Positions 33,901-58,403 of a DNA stretch of 64,000 bases are shown one piece after another; within the stretch, counting starts at the first letter, position 1; each line of letters begins with the position of its first letter. The notes under the pieces are model-generated. The model was not told the DNA's origin. It saw only the letters and a program-made list of their open reading frames with translations, and did not search any database. The stretch is taken from IMG/VR virus record IMGVR_UViG_3300047476_001426, positions 1-64,000 of that record, one strand, 5' to 3'. The translations under genes and the position numbers were made by a program. This DNA comes from a virus.

Positions 33901-34599
33901 ATGCCGCGTAAACGAACCCAAAAAATTTATTTTGGGGAGGAACAAGAACAAGCGGTTGTAAGATATTTAGAATCCGACTCCGATAGCGAAAAGAATAAGA
34001 TATTCAATGAATATTTAAGAGAACCTCTCACAATAATGGTCGAAAGTATTATTCGACGTTATAAATTATATAGAAAAGACTTTGAATTCGTAGATATACA
34101 TGCGGATACGATGTCTTTTCTTATGACTAAGATTAACAAATTCGACCATACAAAAAACCATAAAGCTTATTCTTATTTCGGAACCATTTGTAAAAATTAC
34201 TTAATGGGTGCGATTCAAAAGGATGCTAAGGAAATGAACAGAAATGTGTCCTATGACGACATTTCATCCGATTTAGAAGAGAGTACGGAACATTCTTATT
34301 CTATAGACGAATATCATATTGATTATAAAGATGTGATAATAAAATTCATTATTGAGTTGGAGACGTTTATGGAGGAGGAAGAACTAAACGAAAATGAACA
34401 AAAATTAGGATATGCGTTAATTGAGATTTTTAGCAACTTTGAAAAAATCTTCCAAGTTGGTGAAGGTAATAAATTTAATAAGAACCTGATTTTATTGTCA
34501 TTACGTGAAATGACATCACTTTCAACTAAAGAAATAAGAATATCATTGAAAAGATATAAAAAAGTTTATGAAGGTATCATGATTGGATTCATAAATTAA
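33901..34599 (+). CDS. 55: Late-transcription sigma factor (gp55-like)
   Basis: 232 aa. Residues about 35-115 resemble sigma-70 region 2: FNEYLREPLTIMVESIIRRY, FVDIHADTMSFLMTKINKFD and NHKAYSYFGTICKNYLMGAI, the last being the usual YF-x-x-IxKNYL core-binding/-10 recognition helix. No clear region 4 is visible, as in T4 gp55, which needs only the -10-like TATAAATA box. The protein would direct host RNA polymerase to the TATTTATA-type late motifs found throughout the window. It is last in an early operon, so its product accumulates before late genes turn on. Confidence 0.82.
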   Translation: MPRKRTQKIYFGEEQEQAVVRYLESDSDSEKNKIFNEYLREPLTIMVESIIRRYKLYRKDFEFVDIHADTMSFLMTKINKFDHTKNHKAYSYFGTICKNYLMGAIQKDAKEMNRNVSYDDISSDLEESTEHSYSIDEYHIDYKDVIIKFIIELETFMEEEELNENEQKLGYALIEIFSNFEKIFQVGEGNKFNKNLILLSLREMTSLSTKEIRISLKRYKKVYEGIMIGFIN

Positions 34600-42691: not shown

Positions 42692-44449
42692 TTATCTCAA
42701 GGTGTCAAGACTGAATGTAGTCAAACCACCAACGTTAATCACACCAAAGTAACGGTTGTTAACCATTTTCTTAGCGTATCTTGTCATGATACCTTTGATT
42801 GGTGTAAAGTTGAATGGGTTGTACATTGTAGGTGTCAATTGTAATGGAACGTATGGTGCGTAAATGTAACCAGCGTCCAACAATGATTTACCTTTGTGAC
42901 CGATGATGATTTTACCTGATGGTAAATAAGGGTCACGGTAAACTTGGTAACGACCTGCTAATGAACCGATTTTCTCGATACCCATGTTGTATTGGTCTTG
43001 CTCAGGGTTTGCGTTTGATACGTGGAAGTATTCCAAGTCATCAAATACTGCAGATACCTCAGAAGATACAACAATCCAGTTAGCTCCACCTCTTAAGGTA
43101 GTTTTGTGGATTTGAGCTGAGATTTGGTTAATCTTGGTAACCAAAGTTTGGTTCCAGTCTTTTTGAGTGTAACCAGCGAATGATGAACCACCATTACCGT
43201 ATCTCCACTCATTGTAGTCCCATTTAGCTGACCAAGCGGCACCTTTACGGATGTCACGAAGGATTTCACGGTCGATTTCTGCTGCGATTTGCTCAGACAA
43301 TAAAGCTGTCAATTCTGCTTCAGCATCGATGTTGTGGAATGCACTTACGTCTTGAGCCAATTCAGGAGACCAGCTAGCTCTTAACTTTCTTTCAGTTACA
43401 GAAACTGTTACTGATTGAAGGTCGAAAGATACTTCACCGATTTCTTCTTCGAATTCAAGTGAACTGTATTCTCTCCAAGAAACTTTAAGGTCAGTTGCTG
43501 CCAATGTAGAACCTGCAACTACGTAGTCTGTGTAACCAGTTGTTACACCGTTATATTTTTGTAAGTCAACTTGAAGGTAGATAACACCTTCAGCGTCACA
43601 AATGTTGTCATATTTACCTGTTCTACCAGTACCTTTGCTTCCGTATTCAACAATACCTTTACCGTATTTTTGAGTTACAACGTTGAAAGGGATGTTAGCG
43701 GCTACAGTTGCACCTAAGTGACTATATAGACCACTATCAATTCCTGATTGAGTAAATACTGTTAATGAAGCCAAGAATTCTTCAGTGTCCATAACTTGAC
43801 CGTTAGGACCTGCAAGTTTAGCCGCACCATCGTAAGTTGTGAAACCTGAAAGTTTTAAGATTACACTTGAAACTGAAGTACCTGAAGCGATTGCTGATTG
43901 TGTACTAGCAACACCGTTACTGAATGTTACGAATTCAATAGAAGTACCTGTGATAGTTGAATAGGTACCTTTTGAATAATCGAACAAACCTGAATCTACT
44001 GAATCACTTGACTCATAGAAACGGTCGTACAAGTTATTACCTGTGTAACCAGCAGCTGGGTCAGTCTCAGCACTTGGGAATCCGTAAGGTTGACGGTGAG
44101 CGTTGTCGCTTCTGTCTTGGATTTTAGGTACGAAGTAGAACAATTTACCGATAGGTAAGTTCATTGCTTGTACTGAAACGATGTCATTCGCTAATAATTT
44201 AGAGAATACACGACGGATGATAGGGAATACTACAGTTTCGAAAGAACCTGAAGCATCGGCTACAGCCGCTTCGTTGATTAGGTATGAAGCTTGGTTTTCA
44301 TACAATTGTGCGATGTTGTCTTTTTGGTGACCGTTAAGACCCTCAAGGAATCCTAAGTCGTCCCATTTTTTGATGGTATCTTCTTTGATAACACGAAGGT
44401 GCTTAAGACCGATGTTACCAACCATACCTGATTCTAATAATGCTCCCAT
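42692..44449 (-). CDS. 23: Major capsid protein gp23-like
   Basis: 585 aa. Its N-terminus has LKHLRVIKEDTIKKWDDLGF, NIAQLYENQASYLINEAAVA and FPIIRRVFSKLLANDIVSVQ, characteristic of gp23. The rest shows conserved capsid segments such as VTERKLRASWSPELAQDVSA, TALLSEQIAAEIDREIL, GANWIVVSSEVSAVFDDLEY and APYVPLQLTPTMYNPFNF. It forms the head shell after proteolytic maturation by the gp21-type protease. No late motif is visible in the 34-base gap upstream, so it is probably transcribed with the scaffold gene. A strong terminator follows. Confidence 0.96.
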   Translation of the reverse strand: MGALLESGMVGNIGLKHLRVIKEDTIKKWDDLGFLEGLNGHQKDNIAQLYENQASYLINEAAVADASGSFETVVFPIIRRVFSKLLANDIVSVQAMNLPIGKLFYFVPKIQDRSDNAHRQPYGFPSAETDPAAGYTGNNLYDRFYESSDSVDSGLFDYSKGTYSTITGTSIEFVTFSNGVASTQSAIASGTSVSSVILKLSGFTTYDGAAKLAGPNGQVMDTEEFLASLTVFTQSGIDSGLYSHLGATVAANIPFNVVTQKYGKGIVEYGSKGTGRTGKYDNICDAEGVIYLQVDLQKYNGVTTGYTDYVVAGSTLAATDLKVSWREYSSLEFEEEIGEVSFDLQSVTVSVTERKLRASWSPELAQDVSAFHNIDAEAELTALLSEQIAAEIDREILRDIRKGAAWSAKWDYNEWRYGNGGSSFAGYTQKDWNQTLVTKINQISAQIHKTTLRGGANWIVVSSEVSAVFDDLEYFHVSNANPEQDQYNMGIEKIGSLAGRYQVYRDPYLPSGKIIIGHKGKSLLDAGYIYAPYVPLQLTPTMYNPFNFTPIKGIMTRYAKKMVNNRYFGVINVGGLTTFSLDTLR

Positions 44450-45829: not shown

Positions 45830-46513
45830 TTATTTACCCAAATAAGTATCTAACTTGGACATTAGATTTTTCATCCTATCCGAGTCTACGGGTTTTTCTT
45901 GAATTGATTCTTGATATTGGTCTCTGTCCTTTAAATCGGCAAAAACATACGCACCTGGCGTACTTGGGGATGATACTAAGTCAAAACAAACTAATTCAAA
46001 ATCTTCTTGAACTATGTTTTGACCTTTGATGTTTTTTAATGAACCCACACCTCTTGAAGAAATACCAAGAGTTGCACCATTCATTAATAACATTGCAGCT
46101 TGGTCCCCTTTGGTACTAACTATACCCATTTTCTTCCAAGCGGGAGAAGTAAATAATTTAATCTTACCCATCAAGATTTTTCCATCCCACCATGTTTCTA
46201 ATATGGAATGTGAAACTCTATCTAAATCGATAAGGGAAGATGTTGGGTGATTTAATTCATTTAACGCACTACCTTTTTTAATTAAGGTTTGATATTTTTC
46301 GTTTTCTCTTTTTAAAATGCTTTCAGGATATATTCTACCGTTTTTATTTGGGGTATCATATTTTTGCAAAACTGCGTAAAGGATTATATCTTGTGAATAA
46401 TCCACATCCTTCATTTCAGAAATTATTTTCTGATTCTCTAATGGTGATATATAACCGGCATCGTATTCTATTAGTATACCTTTACCGGTTTCGTTTGGGC
46501 CGAGTATTTTCAT
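45830..46513 (-). CDS. 21: Prohead maturation protease gp21-like
   Basis: 227 aa, serine protease of the herpes/T4 prohead class. The catalytic His is in GSALNELNHPTSSLIDLDRV (about residue 89) and the Ser in GATLGISSRGVGSLKNI (about 154). It cleaves scaffold and capsid precursors during head maturation and then itself. The start MKILGPNETGKGILIEYDAG is typical of these proteases. Near its C-terminus it carries DRMKNLMSKL, nearly identical to the scaffold end. A late motif variant lies 13 bases upstream of the ATG. Confidence 0.93.
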   Translation of the reverse strand: MKILGPNETGKGILIEYDAGYISPLENQKIISEMKDVDYSQDIILYAVLQKYDTPNKNGRIYPESILKRENEKYQTLIKKGSALNELNHPTSSLIDLDRVSHSILETWWDGKILMGKIKLFTSPAWKKMGIVSTKGDQAAMLLMNGATLGISSRGVGSLKNIKGQNIVQEDFELVCFDLVSSPSTPGAYVFADLKDRDQYQESIQEKPVDSDRMKNLMSKLDTYLGK

Positions 46514-46548: not shown

Positions 46549-46974
46549 TTAATTCTTCTTTTCAAAGAAATTAAATAAAGTTTCGTCCGTTAAAACGGTA
46601 TCTACTATAGATTCTGATAAGTTGGATATAATGTTTCTAACCTCTTTTGACCTTACATCAAAAAATTTTTCTACATATAAAGTTATTTCAAGGTCCATGA
46701 ATGACCTTTTGTTTTCTTTTATACCATTGGTTTTAATATCTAAATCGACTATTGATTCTCTCTTGAATAGTTCAGAATTTAGAGAATAGATTTTCTCCTT
46801 AATCTGTCTTCTGGTTTTTGATATTAGTTTATCAAAGTCATGGTCGATTATTGTGGGTTGGGTCCATGAGTTTAGTTGAATGTAGACCGTTTTTAAGTTC
46901 TTGTAATCAACAGTGCCGTACCCAATCTTTACATTATTGTGTACACCGATTGAAATAAACTTTCCTTTTTTCAT
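46549..46974 (-). CDS. Unknown protein in head gene cluster (141 aa)
   Basis: Reads MKKGKFISIGVHNNVKIGYG, VDYKNLKTVYIQLNSWTQPT and a C-terminal helical part with FDVRSKEVRNIISNLSESIV. No family was recognised. It lies between the prohead protease and the bS21/246-aa gene pair on the same strand as the head genes, which suggests a head-related role. No exact late motif was seen upstream. Confidence 0.6.
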   Translation of the reverse strand: MKKGKFISIGVHNNVKIGYGTVDYKNLKTVYIQLNSWTQPTIIDHDFDKLISKTRRQIKEKIYSLNSELFKRESIVDLDIKTNGIKENKRSFMDLEITLYVEKFFDVRSKEVRNIISNLSESIVDTVLTDETLFNFFEKKN

Positions 46975-47070
46975 TTAAATTTATCATACTTATATATTTT
47001 ATGGTGTATTTAAAATATACAGAATAAACTTAACAAATCAAAATATTTCAATTATATTTAAAAAAAACTT

Positions 47071-47271
47071 ATGATAATCGTAAACGTCAGTAAAGAGAAG
47101 AACCTTGAATCTGCATTAAAAAAATACAAATACAAGGTTCAAAAGACTAAACAAAATGATAAATTGAGGGAGAAACAGGAATATACCAAACCCTCAGTTG
47201 CTAAAAGAAGTAAAAAGTTAAAAGCCATCTACAAACAACAATTATTCACGAATCAAGAAAAATCAAATTAG
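47071..47271 (+). CDS. rpsU: Ribosomal protein bS21-like
   Basis: 66 aa: MIIVNVSKEKNLESALKKYK, then YKVQKTKQNDKLREKQEYTK and PSVAKRSKKLKAIYKQQ. This is the whole bS21 fold pattern (short strand, ALxxYK helix, basic helix with EYxKPSVAxR) and the KPSVAxR form is the one found in Bacteroidota bS21. bS21 binds the 30S platform near the anti-Shine-Dalgarno end of 16S rRNA. It is a lone plus-strand gene inside the minus-strand head cluster and overlaps the convergent 246-aa gene by 9 bases. A TATATTTA box lies 10 bases upstream but its -33 element is poor. Confidence 0.82.
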   Translation: MIIVNVSKEKNLESALKKYKYKVQKTKQNDKLREKQEYTKPSVAKRSKKLKAIYKQQLFTNQEKSN

Positions 47272-48003
47272 ACCGTTTTTCAATTCAATCAATTTGTAGT
47301 AATTGTATTTAGTATTCTCTGATTTATCTACTTCAGATTTTACATTATTAAGTTTACTTACCACCGAATCCTCGGTCGATTCTTTTAAAAGTGAATCAAG
47401 TTTATTATTCAATTCTTTTTTAATACTTTCCATTTCAAGAACCAGTTCTTCATTTGTCATGGAAACAATCTTATTAAAAATTCCTTTTTGCTCTTCATTT
47501 AAAAAATCTGCGTATTTGATATTGAAATTATTTACCAAGACGGCATTTAATAAAGAATGGTTTTCAATTTGAATTGGGGAAGGTTCAACAACTTCTTGTT
47601 TCTTTTCAGAAACTAAGTGATTTATTAAGTTTTCTCTCGCGTCAATTTTAGATGCAATGTTATGCATGTTTGATTCTTCAGATAAAACATCTAAATCATT
47701 GTAAACCGAACTATTCTCCACAACAACATCTTTGAGAGATTTACCGAACTCTTTCATTTCTTTTTTCAAAGATTTCATCTTATCAATCAAAATAGGTTCA
47801 ATAGATTCCACATACAATTTTGCTTTATCCTTACTTTTAATATTGAGATTTTCTATGTTTTCATAAAACATATACATCTCAACCAAAGATTTATTTGATT
47901 TTAATTTTTTTACCAAATCTTTAATTTCACCTTTATTATTAGAGGTGTACGATTCGGTTAATTTTGTTAACAGTTTTGTTTTTAATTCACCAAAGTTTGT
48001 CAT
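47263..48003 (-). CDS. Unknown helical protein next to portal (246 aa)
   Basis: Almost entirely charged helix: FGELKTKLLTKLTESYTSNN, DLVKKLKSNKSLVEMYMFYE, IEPILIDKMKSLKKEMKEFG and MTNEELVLEMESIKKELNNK. It directly follows the portal gene (5-base gap), so it is a likely head assembly protein or scaffold accessory. No family was recognised. Its 3' end overlaps the bS21 gene. Confidence 0.6.
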   Translation of the reverse strand: MTNFGELKTKLLTKLTESYTSNNKGEIKDLVKKLKSNKSLVEMYMFYENIENLNIKSKDKAKLYVESIEPILIDKMKSLKKEMKEFGKSLKDVVVENSSVYNDLDVLSEESNMHNIASKIDARENLINHLVSEKKQEVVEPSPIQIENHSLLNAVLVNNFNIKYADFLNEEQKGIFNKIVSMTNEELVLEMESIKKELNNKLDSLLKESTEDSVVSKLNNVKSEVDKSENTKYNYYKLIELKNGLI

Positions 48004-49820: not shown

Positions 49821-49828
49821 TATAAATA
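49821..49828 (-). promoter_or_regulatory. Late-type promoter motif TATTTATA for portal gene
   Basis: Exact TATTTATA in sense, 3 bases before the ATG at 49817. Confidence 0.55.
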
Positions 49829-49869: not shown

Positions 49870-51645
49870 TTATCTTTTTTTACCGAACAACCACGCGTAC
49901 TGTTGATAGTTTTCTTTTGTTGCATTGTTATTGTGTCTTGGGATACTTGGGTCATTATCCATAGACATCGAACCTATTTGGTCAAACGCGGTCCCATATG
50001 AATAAAATGATTTATTTGGTTCGTATGTTCTTTCAGATAGTGTCCATGACTCTAACATCGCTTTATTTGCGTTTTCATTTTTAGTCAATTGACTAAAGGA
50101 AATATCCCCAACATATAAAGCCATCGACATACTCATAATAGCATCATCATGAGCCCCTTTCATGTGGTCAGGTCTACCATTTATATAGACAAACGTATTT
50201 AATTCGTTCATCAATCTAGCGGACCTAACCTGAAAACCTTTCCTCAATTGTTCCTCAAATGCTGCAACGATTTGTGTTCGTTTATTATTGAAATTTAATC
50301 CAGGAATTTTTTCCATTGCTTTAGAATTATATTCCCAAATATTCTTGGTATTAATACCATCAATGTATAAATTCTTGTAGTTTAATTCTTGAAGTTTTCT
50401 TGATGTTGCAACACCCATACCTCCCGTAATATCGACAACAATAAACGCTTCATATAGAATACCCCATTTATATGCAATGGATGCTAAATCATCTGGTGGT
50501 ATTTTTCCAATATATTCCGCAACTTGTTCTCTCTCGTCGAAATCGATAATATTAATTGATGAGAAATCCTCACTATCACCACGGGATACGTCAACACCCA
50601 TAATATATTTGTGACCTTGTATTGGTTCTTTCCATTGCCAAAAGGTCCCCTGCATATATTTTTCCTTTGGGTCCCTCAACATATTTTTTACAATATTATC
50701 TTGAACCTCACTTGGGATTACACCATCACCTGAACCTAAGAAGTCACATTCTAACTCTTGTGCGATTTTACGTCTATCAAATTTGAATTTTTTAGACATT
50801 GCTTCAAACCATGAAGAAAGTGGTTTATAACCGTCTTCTTCATATTGTTTATAGTTGGCGATATCAAAATCGTACATAACAACTTCATCATCATCATATT
50901 GTTCCCTGTTCAACATATAGTGAACAATATCTGAACATTTAACCCATCTTAAATCTTTTGTATATCGAGGGTCTTTAAACCATCTTAAATCGGTAATGTG
51001 AAAATCGTTAACACCTCTGATTGCTTGGTCATATACACCATAATAAATTGGGTCAAATCCATTAGGTGTAGAAATCAAAATAATTTTACCACCCGTTGAT
51101 AATGACGCCATTGATGCTGCCCAAAAATCCTCACCAGCTTCAATATATGCAGCCTCGTCAAATACAAGTATTGTAGGGGTGTAACCACGTAAAGCATCCG
51201 CAGATGTTGCGACCGCTTTCACCTCACACCCATTGTTTAATCTAAATCTACTTTCAGAGTTTTTATCGGGAGAAAACCCAACATTTAACCAATCAGGCCA
51301 TTGGTCTAAAAAATGTCTAATTTTGTTAGCCATCTCCACCGCGGTATCCTTTTTGTTTGCGATGACAAGAACCCTTTCAGGGTTTTCGGGTTTTGCTAAT
51401 TGTAACTTTTTAGAAATCCAAGCAGCAGTTACTGTTGTAACACCGGCCTGTCTATATTTTCTAGTTATATTTTCGTTATAATGTTCGTAATCTTTGAGTA
51501 ACTGAATTTGGTCAGGAAACAACTCTAACGGCACATATCTTTTTTGAGTATTGTCATATGTTTGAAGATACGTTTTTAATGCGTAGGTAGTATCTTTCAT
51601 TATACGAGCATACTCTTTTAATTGTTCAATTTTTTGATTACTCAT
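49870..51645 (-). CDS. 17: Terminase large subunit gp17-like
   Basis: 591 aa packaging motor. The ATPase part has a deviant Walker A RKYRQAGVTTVTA (Val where Lys is usual), Walker B ILVFDEAAYI and coupling motif LISTPNG. The RNase H-like nuclease part has GVDVSRGDSEDFSSI, AFIVVDITGGMGVATSR and HDDAIMSMSMAL, supplying the acidic metal-binding residues. It cuts concatemeric DNA and pumps it through the portal. The late motif is 3 bases before the ATG, and a terminator separates it from the upstream operon. Confidence 0.95.
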   Translation of the reverse strand: MSNQKIEQLKEYARIMKDTTYALKTYLQTYDNTQKRYVPLELFPDQIQLLKDYEHYNENITRKYRQAGVTTVTAAWISKKLQLAKPENPERVLVIANKKDTAVEMANKIRHFLDQWPDWLNVGFSPDKNSESRFRLNNGCEVKAVATSADALRGYTPTILVFDEAAYIEAGEDFWAASMASLSTGGKIILISTPNGFDPIYYGVYDQAIRGVNDFHITDLRWFKDPRYTKDLRWVKCSDIVHYMLNREQYDDDEVVMYDFDIANYKQYEEDGYKPLSSWFEAMSKKFKFDRRKIAQELECDFLGSGDGVIPSEVQDNIVKNMLRDPKEKYMQGTFWQWKEPIQGHKYIMGVDVSRGDSEDFSSINIIDFDEREQVAEYIGKIPPDDLASIAYKWGILYEAFIVVDITGGMGVATSRKLQELNYKNLYIDGINTKNIWEYNSKAMEKIPGLNFNNKRTQIVAAFEEQLRKGFQVRSARLMNELNTFVYINGRPDHMKGAHDDAIMSMSMALYVGDISFSQLTKNENANKAMLESWTLSERTYEPNKSFYSYGTAFDQIGSMSMDNDPSIPRHNNNATKENYQQYAWLFGKKR

Positions 51646-51648
51646 ATA

Positions 51649-51656
51649 TATAAATA
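51649..51656 (-). promoter_or_regulatory. Late-type promoter motif TATTTATA for terminase gene
   Basis: Exact TATTTATA in sense, 3 bases before the ATG at 51645, directly after the upstream terminator. Confidence 0.55.
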
Positions 51657-51657
51657 T

Positions 51658-51684
51658 GAAAAAGGGTGGTTAAAACCACCCTTC
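51658..51684 (-). terminator. Rho-independent terminator before terminase gene
   Basis: Minus-strand stem AAGGGTGG/CCACCCTT with a short T/A-rich loop followed by TTT, 10 bases after the stop of the 449-aa gene. Confidence 0.8.
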
Positions 51685-56384: not shown

Positions 56385-58403
56385 ATGTCAGTAGATTTTT
56401 TCGAAGAAGGAAATGTTTCCAACCCCAAAAAGACGAGAAAGGGTTCTACCACCCCTATCCTTGATAATTTTTCAAGGGATTTAAACAAAATGGTTGAAGA
56501 AGGTAAAATTGACCCCGTCATCGGTAGAGATGGTGAGGTTAAGAGAATCGCTCAAATTTTATCTCGTAAAAAGAAAAACAACGTAGTAATTGTTGGTGAC
56601 GCAGGTGTTGGTAAATCTGCTTTGGTTGAAAAGTTGGCCCAACTAATTGTTAAGGGTGACTGCCCTTCAAATCTTTTAGATAAAAGGATTGTGTCACTTG
56701 ATTTGACATCATTAGTTGCTGGTACCAAATATAGAGGTCAATTTGAAGAAAGGATTAAGGCCATACTAAATGAATTACAAAACGAACCCAATGTAATTGT
56801 GTTTATTGATGAAATACATACGATGGTTGGTGCGGGTAATGCTAGTGGTTCCATGGATGCTGCTAATATCATGAAACCAGCTTTGGCGAGAGGTGAAATC
56901 CAATGTATCGGTGCAACCACCTTTGATGAATTTAAGAAACACATTGAGAAGGACGGTGCGTTGGTAAGAAGATTCCAAAAAATAATTTTAAAGGAACCGA
57001 CTAAAGAAGAAACGGTACAAATTTTAAATAACTTGAAGGAGTCATATCAAAACTTCCATAAAGTATTTTATGAACCGAATGTGTTTGAAACGATTGTTAA
57101 TCTTTCATCTAGATTTATCACAGATAGACAATTTCCTGATAAGGCGATTGATGTTATGGATGAACTTGGTTCAGACAAAAAAATCAACACCAAAATCCCT
57201 GAAGTGTTGGAAAAACTCAAAAAAGATTCTGACGAGCTAAAGGAAAGAAAAATACAGGTTGTTAAAAGTCAAAATTATGAACAAGCAGCAAAATTGAGGG
57301 ATGAAGAAAGGAAGATATTGAGTAGGTTAGATGAAGAGAAGAAAAAATGGTTGGAAAAACAAAAGGACAATAAAACACCCGTAACTATAGACGATGTATA
57401 TGATATTATCTCGCAAATGACAGGTGTGCCACTCTCTAAAATTGACGAGAGGGAGACAACAAACTTATTAAGTTTAGAAGAAAAATTAAAATCAAAAGTG
57501 ATTGGACAAGATGAGGCCATCTCAATCATATCAAAATCTATCAGAAGAAATAGAGTTGGTATTAAAGATACCAACAAACCTATTGGTTCGTTTATATTCT
57601 TAGGTTCAACAGGTGTTGGTAAAACCTACTTAGCTAAATCAATTGCAGAAATTTTATTTGGTGACCCTGATAAAGTTATACGAGTTGATATGAGTGAGTA
57701 CATGGAAAAACACAATGTTGCTAAACTAATAGGTTCTCCTCCGGGTTATGTTGGGTATGATGAAGGTGGTCAATTGACTGAAAAAATAAAAAACAATCCA
57801 TTTTCAGTTGTCCTATTTGATGAGGTTGAAAAGGCACATAAAGATGTCTTCAATATCCTACTTCAAATTTTGGACGAAGGTCACCTAACAGACTCCTTTG
57901 GTAGGAAGGTAAACTTCACAAATACAATTGTGATTATGACATCAAACATTGGTGCAAAAAAGGTTTCCGAATTTGGTAGAGGAGTTGGTTTTGACTCATC
58001 ATCATCAAACACACAGAATTTTGAAGTTAAAAAATCAATTGTTCAAAAATCTTTGAAACAACATTTTAACCCCGAGTTTTTAAATAGGGTTGATGACATT
58101 ATCAGTTTCAATTCGTTAGATAAAGACGTTATTAAACAAATTATTGGAATTGAACTGAATAAATTGGTTGTGAGATTGAAAGACAAAAACTTCAAAATTT
58201 CATTTGATAAAACAATCATTGAAAGAATTTCAGAACTCAACACACAAGAAGATTATGGTGCTAGACCTATTAAAAGAATCATTCAAAACCTTTGTGAAGA
58301 CTTCTTAAGTGATTCAATTTTGAAAGGTGATATTAAAGAAAATGAAAACATTACTTTGAAATTTAAAGATGGTGAAATAAAAATTTTTAAAAAAAAGGTC
58401 TAA
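56385..58403 (+). CDS. ClpC-like AAA+ unfoldase lacking the N-domain (672 aa)
   Basis: It has two AAA+ modules. D1: GDAGVGKS (71-78), VIVFIDEIH (137-145), LVRRFQKI. A UVR-type motif, QNYEQAAKLRDEER (296-309), lies between the modules and marks ClpC rather than ClpA or ClpB. D2: GSTGVGKT (407-414), SVVLFDEVEKAH, FLNRVDD. After the TSNIGA segment it keeps GVGFD (VGF at 534-536), the kind of loop that docks ClpC onto ClpP. Host ClpC (about 840 aa) begins with two Clp-N repeats that receive adaptors; these are absent and replaced by about 20 residues. The gene is alone, early-type and probably host-derived. Confidence 0.92.
   Translation: MSVDFFEEGNVSNPKKTRKGSTTPILDNFSRDLNKMVEEGKIDPVIGRDGEVKRIAQILSRKKKNNVVIVGDAGVGKSALVEKLAQLIVKGDCPSNLLDKRIVSLDLTSLVAGTKYRGQFEERIKAILNELQNEPNVIVFIDEIHTMVGAGNASGSMDAANIMKPALARGEIQCIGATTFDEFKKHIEKDGALVRRFQKIILKEPTKEETVQILNNLKESYQNFHKVFYEPNVFETIVNLSSRFITDRQFPDKAIDVMDELGSDKKINTKIPEVLEKLKKDSDELKERKIQVVKSQNYEQAAKLRDEERKILSRLDEEKKKWLEKQKDNKTPVTIDDVYDIISQMTGVPLSKIDERETTNLLSLEEKLKSKVIGQDEAISIISKSIRRNRVGIKDTNKPIGSFIFLGSTGVGKTYLAKSIAEILFGDPDKVIRVDMSEYMEKHNVAKLIGSPPGYVGYDEGGQLTEKIKNNPFSVVLFDEVEKAHKDVFNILLQILDEGHLTDSFGRKVNFTNTIVIMTSNIGAKKVSEFGRGVGFDSSSSNTQNFEVKKSIVQKSLKQHFNPEFLNRVDDIISFNSLDKDVIKQIIGIELNKLVVRLKDKNFKISFDKTIIERISELNTQEDYGARPIKRIIQNLCEDFLSDSILKGDIKENENITLKFKDGEIKIFKKKV

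What the first reader, a model, noticed from the sequence alone, without database searches (positions are those of the whole stretch)
47071..47271. Phage-encoded bS21 inside the head gene cluster
The 66-aa product is a full-length Bacteroidota-type ribosomal protein bS21. In Bacteroidota, bS21 helps hide the anti-Shine-Dalgarno end of 16S rRNA, and translation starts largely without Shine-Dalgarno pairing. A phage copy could remodel host ribosomes in favour of phage mRNAs, possibly the late short-leader or leaderless ones predicted here. Phage bS21 genes have been reported before, but the link with leaderless late mRNAs is my inference.
Basis: partly seen in the sequence, partly recalled or inferred. 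Interest (0 to 1): 0.74.

Follow-up and report, generated by a model that had tools for sequence, protein, structure and literature searches.

The report
Phage ribosomal protein S21, antisense slot
A large virus of Bacteroidota bacteria carries its own copy of a small ribosomal protein, tucked backwards between its capsid genes; the arrangement was already described in 2022, but this copy lacks the self-limiting control sequence found on the gene in many likely hosts.

Summary
ORF 47071-47271 (+) is a full-length bS21 of the Bacteroidota type with Tyr54 intact, under strong purifying selection. It is not a new kind of thing. Chen et al. 2022 (PMC9723584) described Bacteroidetes phages with bS21 on the strand opposite to the TerL/portal/protease/capsid genes and proposed ribosome takeover. 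In 67 of 72 related viral loci I found the gene in the same place.

Additions, all by sequence only. (1) No phage bS21 leader has a Shine-Dalgarno; 11 of 13 Flavobacteriia rpsU genes here have an extended one (-19 kcal/mol or stronger). The phage copy should escape rpsU autoregulation and could switch off host rpsU. (2) Late genes such as TerL and portal have TATTTATA 3-7 nt before the ATG, so very short or absent leaders are plausible; bS21 lacks that motif and has a host-type -7-like element. (3) An RNA spanning bS21 and its divergent neighbour must be antisense to one of them, so published 'late expression' needs stranded data.

The proposed link between bS21 and leaderless mRNAs is unsupported; in E. 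coli, ribosomes lacking bS21 favour leaderless mRNAs.

The parts
47071..47271 (+). bS21 gene (66 aa), Bacteroidota type, Tyr54 present
   Evidence: Pfam PF01165 E 2e-10; PDB bS21 chains 9i5v, 7jil; dN/dS 0.03-0.13; all-phage clade in tree
47053..47060 (+). TATATTTA, host-type -7-like element 10 nt before the bS21 ATG; predicted leader about 5-6 nt if used (element-to-start spacing of 4-5 nt from F. johnsoniae, PMC6847099)
   Evidence: TAT[AC]TTT 9-14 nt before ATG in 17 of 18 leader variants of the near clade; absent in L056. No -33 TTG on this strand. Prediction only
47012..47042 (-). TTTG-N19-TATATTTT, host-type promoter pointing away from bS21 towards the divergent neighbour gene
   Evidence: Conserved with N19 or N20 in all 18 near-clade variants; the only TTTG-N19-TATATTTT in the window
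46549..46974 (-). Divergent conserved neighbour (141 aa), very likely Chen et al.'s 'bS21_CN'; function unknown, alpha/beta fold
   Evidence: Next to bS21 in 67 of 72 loci; AlphaFold model pLDDT 88.9; no confident solved-structure match
47263..48003 (-). Convergent hypothetical gene (246 aa) whose 3' end overlaps bS21 by 9 nt
   Evidence: Convergent overlap of 4-9 nt kept across the relatives, except L073
48009..49817 (-). T4-type portal (Gp20)
   Evidence: PF07230 E 4e-76
45830..46513 (-). Prohead protease (S77)
   Evidence: PF03420 E 1e-22
42692..44449 (-). Major capsid protein (Gp23)
   Evidence: PF07068 E 7e-76
49870..51645 (-). Terminase large subunit
   Evidence: PF03237 E 2e-8; phrog_5989 E 4e-21
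51649..51656 (-). TATTTATA late-promoter-like motif, 3 nt before the TerL ATG
   Evidence: Kept at 3 nt in 15 of 16 distinct TerL upstreams
51661..51684 (-). Terminator hairpin just upstream of TerL; any transcript starting after it has a leader of at most about 15 nt
   Evidence: Terminator scan; similar hairpin in nearly all TerL upstreams of relatives

Best explanation
The gene encodes a working phage bS21 that enters the host 30S subunit in place of host bS21. It keeps the anti-Shine-Dalgarno tail hidden (Tyr54 kept), so host ribosomes stay fit for SD-less mRNAs, which the phage mRNAs here are; its altered N-terminal half may retune mRNA binding. Its leader has no SD, unlike rpsU of most Flavobacteriia. 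Inferred consequences: phage bS21 synthesis is not throttled by the host's bS21-sensing loop, and ribosomes filled with phage bS21 would no longer translate SD-dependent host rpsU well, so host bS21 is progressively replaced. It is transcribed from its own site on the strand opposite to the head genes, not from the TATTTATA class. Shown here: identity, selection, conserved place and orientation, Tyr54, absence of SD, different upstream motif. Inferred: incorporation, exchange, promoter use and any preference for phage mRNAs.
For: bS21 identity. Purifying selection. Same slot and orientation in 67 of 72 loci, TerL identity 57-100%. Tyr54 invariant; the near clade diverges from hosts at positions 8-10, 12, 14, 23, 30 and 55, mostly N-terminal. 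Leader duplex with the 16S tail: phage median +0.7 and strongest -5.9 kcal/mol over 32 distinct leaders; 11 of 13 Flavobacteriia rpsU at -19 to -23. No window gene has an SD under -8 kcal/mol against 5.8% of random ATGs, which suits a Bacteroidota host. rpsU autoregulation by bS21-free ribosomes is shown in F. johnsoniae (PMC9976891). Another phage bS21 does enter E. coli 70S ribosomes (PMC6375957).
Against: No incorporation or expression data for this protein. Ribosomes carrying the pelagiphage bS21 were only about 5% active in vitro (PMC6375957), so a viral bS21 can also cripple translation. The host is not identified; most Bacteroidales rpsU in my set also lack an SD, in which case the autoregulation argument falls away. 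The bS21 -7-like element lacks the final G and a -33 box, and is missing in L056.
Confidence: 0.55

Rival explanations
1. Specialised late ribosomes (published model): phage bS21, made late together with the capsid genes, replaces host bS21 and makes ribosomes prefer phage late mRNAs, possibly short-leader or leaderless ones.
For: Chen et al. report co-occurring transcripts of bS21 and structural genes in lake samples (PMC9723584). TATTTATA 3 nt from the TerL and portal ATGs suggests nearly leaderless late mRNAs.
Against: bS21 lacks TATTTATA in 28 of 29 leader variants. Chen et al. do not say the reads were stranded; bS21 lies antisense to head genes with no terminator found between it and the convergent gene, and an RNA covering both bS21 and the divergent neighbour must be antisense to one of them. 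In E. coli, loss of bS21 goes with leaderless translation (PMC4929434).
Confidence: 0.25
2. Host shut-off: phage bS21 incorporates but makes ribosomes poor at host mRNAs or blocks host recovery, acting mainly as a translation inhibitor.
For: Pelagiphage bS21-bearing E. coli ribosomes had about 5% activity (PMC6375957).
Against: That was a cross-lineage pairing. Here Tyr54 and the shared core residues are kept, and a phage needs active ribosomes for capsid synthesis.
Confidence: 0.12
3. Packaged protein: a small basic protein encoded among prohead core genes is taken into the virion and injected, acting from the start of infection (suggested by Chen et al.).
For: Location between protease and portal; net charge +13.
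Against: No packaging feature was recognised by eye; orientation and upstream motif differ from the head genes.
Confidence: 0.06

Closest known systems
bS21-encoding Bacteroidetes phages of Chen et al. 2022 (PMC9723584)
   Same: Bacteroidota-type bS21 on the strand opposite to TerL, portal, protease and MCP; flanked by two hypothetical genes, one with a coupled history (bS21_CN); aromatic residue 54; divergent N-terminal region; large T4-like myoviruses.
   Different: This record is 136 kb and probably a fragment; relatives with 96% TerL identity lie on contigs of 233-288 kb. I also find the same slot in a second group with only 57-64% TerL identity. SD absence and promoter classes are not treated in the parts of that paper I read.
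bS21 of Pelagibacter phage HTVC008M (PMC6375957)
   Same: Phage-encoded bS21 in a T4-like myovirus; shown to enter 70S ribosomes in E. coli.
   Different: Alphaproteobacterial type, acquired from its own host; not detected by tblastn with this protein.
Host rpsU/bS21 of Flavobacterium johnsoniae (PMC9976891)
   Same: 40% identical protein, Tyr54, hides the anti-SD tail.
   Different: The host gene has an extended SD and is autoregulated; the phage gene has none.

Membership tests
Ribosomal protein bS21 (PF01165) | Full-length S21 domain above the curated cut-off | tested here: met
   40.6 bits against cut-off 27, profile 2-54 of 55
Ribosomal protein bS21 (PF01165) | Incorporation into the 30S subunit | not testable with these tools
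   Needs ribosome purification and mass spectrometry
Bacteroidia-type bS21 | Tyr54 (aromatic) that stacks on A1534 of the 16S tail | tested here: met
   Tyr54 in the window protein and in all 30 distinct phage and 76 distinct host proteins
Autoregulated rpsU of Flavobacteriales | Extended SD upstream of the bS21 gene | tested here: not met
   No SD in any of 32 distinct phage leaders; 11 of 13 Flavobacteriia hosts at -19 kcal/mol or stronger
bS21 phages of Chen et al. 2022 | bS21 on the strand opposite to TerL/portal/protease/MCP, between two conserved hypothetical genes | tested here: met
   Window and 67 of 72 loci
bS21 phages of Chen et al. 2022 | Genome of 293-331 kb | tested here: inconclusive
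   Record is 136,485 bases; close relatives on contigs up to 288,260 bases
bS21 phages of Chen et al. 2022 | Placement in TerL clades a-e | not tested
   Their TerL sequences were not at hand
bS21 phages of Chen et al. 2022 | bS21 expressed at the late stage | not testable with these tools
   No RNA data for this phage

The most novel reading that the evidence does not exclude
The phage exploits the host's own bS21-sensing circuit. A bS21 whose mRNA has no SD fills ribosomes without being throttled, thereby hides the anti-SD and shuts down SD-dependent host rpsU, so the ribosome population is converted to the phage form. It would be made from a host-type promoter before or apart from the TATTTATA genes, rather than late as published.
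Probability: 0.25. Interest if true: 0.7.

Novelty: new member of a known kind. Interest (0 to 1): 0.38.

Why it matters
bS21 is the most common ribosomal protein in phage genomes and its purpose there is untested. Bacteroidota ribosomes have a defined bS21-dependent switch (anti-SD hidden or free) with one dominant target, rpsU, so the purpose can be tested with existing reporters. The absence of the SD in the phage gene and its antisense position give clear predictions, and cast doubt on unstranded evidence for late expression.

Tried and rejected
The neighbour (46549-46974) as a T4 gp68 homologue: it matches gp68 in length (141 aa) and in order between portal and protease, but it matches none of the PHROG families of gp68, and tblastn found no relative in annotated phages. 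Not shown; dropped. The neighbour as a ribosome-binding fold: the model has a beta-alpha-beta-beta-alpha core, but solved-structure matches are weak and mixed. Dropped. DUF3194 appears weakly by profile (E 0.002, below cut-off) and 3ueb, an archaeal protein, leads the fold list at E 0.004; no paper was found; left open. A ClpP-type protease that could remove host bS21: no PF00574 match in this partial record. The conserved block upstream of bS21 as the bS21 promoter: most of it is better read as the divergent neighbour's promoter on the other strand. Host identification: not achieved beyond Bacteroidota; the nearest annotated isolate with a Bacteroidota host is a Flavobacterium phage at 37.5% portal identity. 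bS21 tree: 64 columns, so only the phage/host separation is usable. The paper on the F. johnsoniae ribosome structure (PMC7797042) is not held.

Full report
What is there. ORF 47071-47271 (+) encodes 66 aa, MIIVNVSKEKNLESALKKYKYKVQKTKQNDKLREKQEYTKPSVAKRSKKLKAIYKQQLFTNQEKSN. It is bS21: PF01165 at 2e-10 and Bacteroidota bS21 chains in solved ribosomes. It is the only S21 match in the 136,485-base virus record that holds the window. The neighbours are T4-type: portal, prohead protease, major capsid protein and terminase. All of them lie on the - strand; bS21 lies on the + strand between a divergent 141-aa gene and a convergent 246-aa gene, with a 9-nt overlap of the 3' ends.

Relatives. A scan of IMG/VR gave 72 loci with a bS21 relative. 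In 67 the order protease - 141-aa gene - bS21 (opposite strand) - portal - TerL is kept wherever the contig reaches. The near clade (L002-L056) has TerL identity of about 81-100%, apart from short end fragments. A second group (L060, L061, L064-L073) keeps the slot at 57-64% TerL identity. Chen et al. state that bS21 near TerL was no longer seen below about 70% similarity; their measure may differ from mine. Five loci (L057, L058, L059, L062, L063) have bS21 in other surroundings. The protein is under strong purifying selection, dN/dS 0.03-0.13. In a tree with 64 Bacteroidota host rows, the window sits in a 16-row all-phage clade (support 96/92), so it is an old phage lineage and not a recent copy from a host (only 64 columns, so finer forks are unresolved).

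Function of the protein. Tyr54 is invariant in phage and host proteins; in F. johnsoniae it contacts the 16S tail and helps hide the anti-SD (PMC9976891, PMC9723584). Positions that differ between the near phage clade and hosts are mainly N-terminal (8, 9, 10, 12, 14, 23, 30) plus 55, in line with Chen et al. Incorporation is inferred from homology and from the pelagiphage experiment (PMC6375957), where ribosomes with viral bS21 were isolated but had about 5% activity.

Control of the gene. I paired the 30 nt before each start with the 16S tail (ViennaRNA duplex). Of 13 Flavobacteriia-named host genes 11 score -19 to -23 kcal/mol; the two exceptions (L152, L155) include a Weeksellaceae member, and an alternative anti-SD is reported for Chryseobacteria and related Flavobacteriales (PMC8710568). 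Most Bacteroidales hosts in the set have none. All 32 distinct phage leaders score -5.9 or weaker, median +0.7. Window genes in general are SD-poor: 0 of 59 under -8 kcal/mol against 5.8% of random ATGs. Since rpsU autoregulation in F. johnsoniae works through that SD (PMC9976891), the phage gene is outside the loop, and phage bS21 filling vacant ribosomes would depress SD-dependent rpsU. This is my inference; I did not find it stated in the passages I read of the two papers. McNutt et al. suggest instead that autoregulation would be a host counter-defence.

Promoters and leaders. TATTTATA occurs 17 times in the window; 14 lie within 41 nt upstream of a gene start on the coding strand. It ends 3-7 nt before the ATG at 9 of 58 starts and at 0 of 2259 other ATGs. 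At TerL it is exactly 3 nt from the ATG in 15 of 16 distinct relatives, directly behind a terminator hairpin; at the portal gene it is 3 nt away in 17 of 25. If it works like a -10/-7 element these mRNAs are leaderless or nearly so. A gp55-like sigma candidate is present. The motif is the reverse complement of T4's TATAAATA (own knowledge) and no start site has been mapped. bS21 does not carry it: TATTTATA is in 1 of 29 leader variants; instead TAT[AC]TTT lies 9-14 nt before the ATG in 17 of 18 near-clade variants, resembling the F. johnsoniae -7 element TAHHTTTG without the G, with 4-5 nt to the start site (PMC6847099), which predicts a leader of about 3-9 nt. The divergent neighbour has a clear host-type promoter, TTTG-N19/20-TATATTTT, in all 18 near-clade variants, TATCTTTT in one of them. 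So bS21 and its neighbour appear to use host-type elements while TerL and portal use TATTTATA. The major capsid gene, however, also lacks TATTTATA, so absence of the motif does not by itself prove non-late expression.

On 'late expression'. Chen et al. infer it from lake metatranscriptomes mapped with Bowtie2; no strandedness is mentioned in the main text. bS21 is antisense to the portal-side transcript, for which no terminator-like site was found before bS21. They also suggest that bS21 and the neighbour are transcribed together; because these genes are divergent, one RNA covering both is antisense to one of them. Their conclusion may be right but is not secured by that evidence.

On leaderless mRNAs. 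In E. coli the ribosomes that select leaderless mRNA are those missing bS1, uS2 and bS21 (PMC4929434), and in F. johnsoniae 87% of transcripts with a probable promoter have leaders over 10 nt (PMC6847099). A role of phage bS21 in translating leaderless late mRNA is therefore possible but not favoured.

Verdict. A real and well-conserved gene, a new member of a published kind. The new points are the missing SD, the different upstream motif, the neighbour's host-type promoter and the wider spread of the slot.

Noticed in passing
window 33901-34599 (+): Candidate gp55-like late sigma factor (phrog_234 E 0.004; Sigma70_r2 E 7e-5 in the record search, below Pfam's cut-off); could read the TATTTATA motif.
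   Followed up: partly
window, 17 sites, e.g. 51649-51656 (-) and 49821-49828 (-): TATTTATA motif, 14 of 17 copies within 41 nt upstream of a gene start, often 3-7 nt from the ATG; predicts leaderless or very short-leader late mRNAs.
   Followed up: yes
window 56385-58403 (+): ClpA/ClpB-type AAA+ unfoldase (phrog_4871 'ATP-dependent protease', E 1e-243); McNutt et al. speculated that such phages might encode a protease against host bS21. No ClpP-family match in the partial record.
   Followed up: partly
window 44481 (-), 47023 (+): The leaders of the major capsid gene and of bS21 share AATAAACTTA, which occurs only three times in 64 kb on both strands; in bS21 it overlaps the neighbour's promoter. 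Unexplained.
   Followed up: no
window 46549-46974 (-): Conserved 141-aa neighbour with a confident alpha/beta model; the only strong match is an uncharacterised protein of Myoviridae sp. ctPuP5, and there is a weak archaeal DUF3194-like signal.
   Followed up: partly
L077 (contig of a Saprospiraceae MAG), L136: bS21 rows on MAG contigs with unusually long tree branches and no SD; may be phage contigs binned into bacterial genomes.
   Followed up: no
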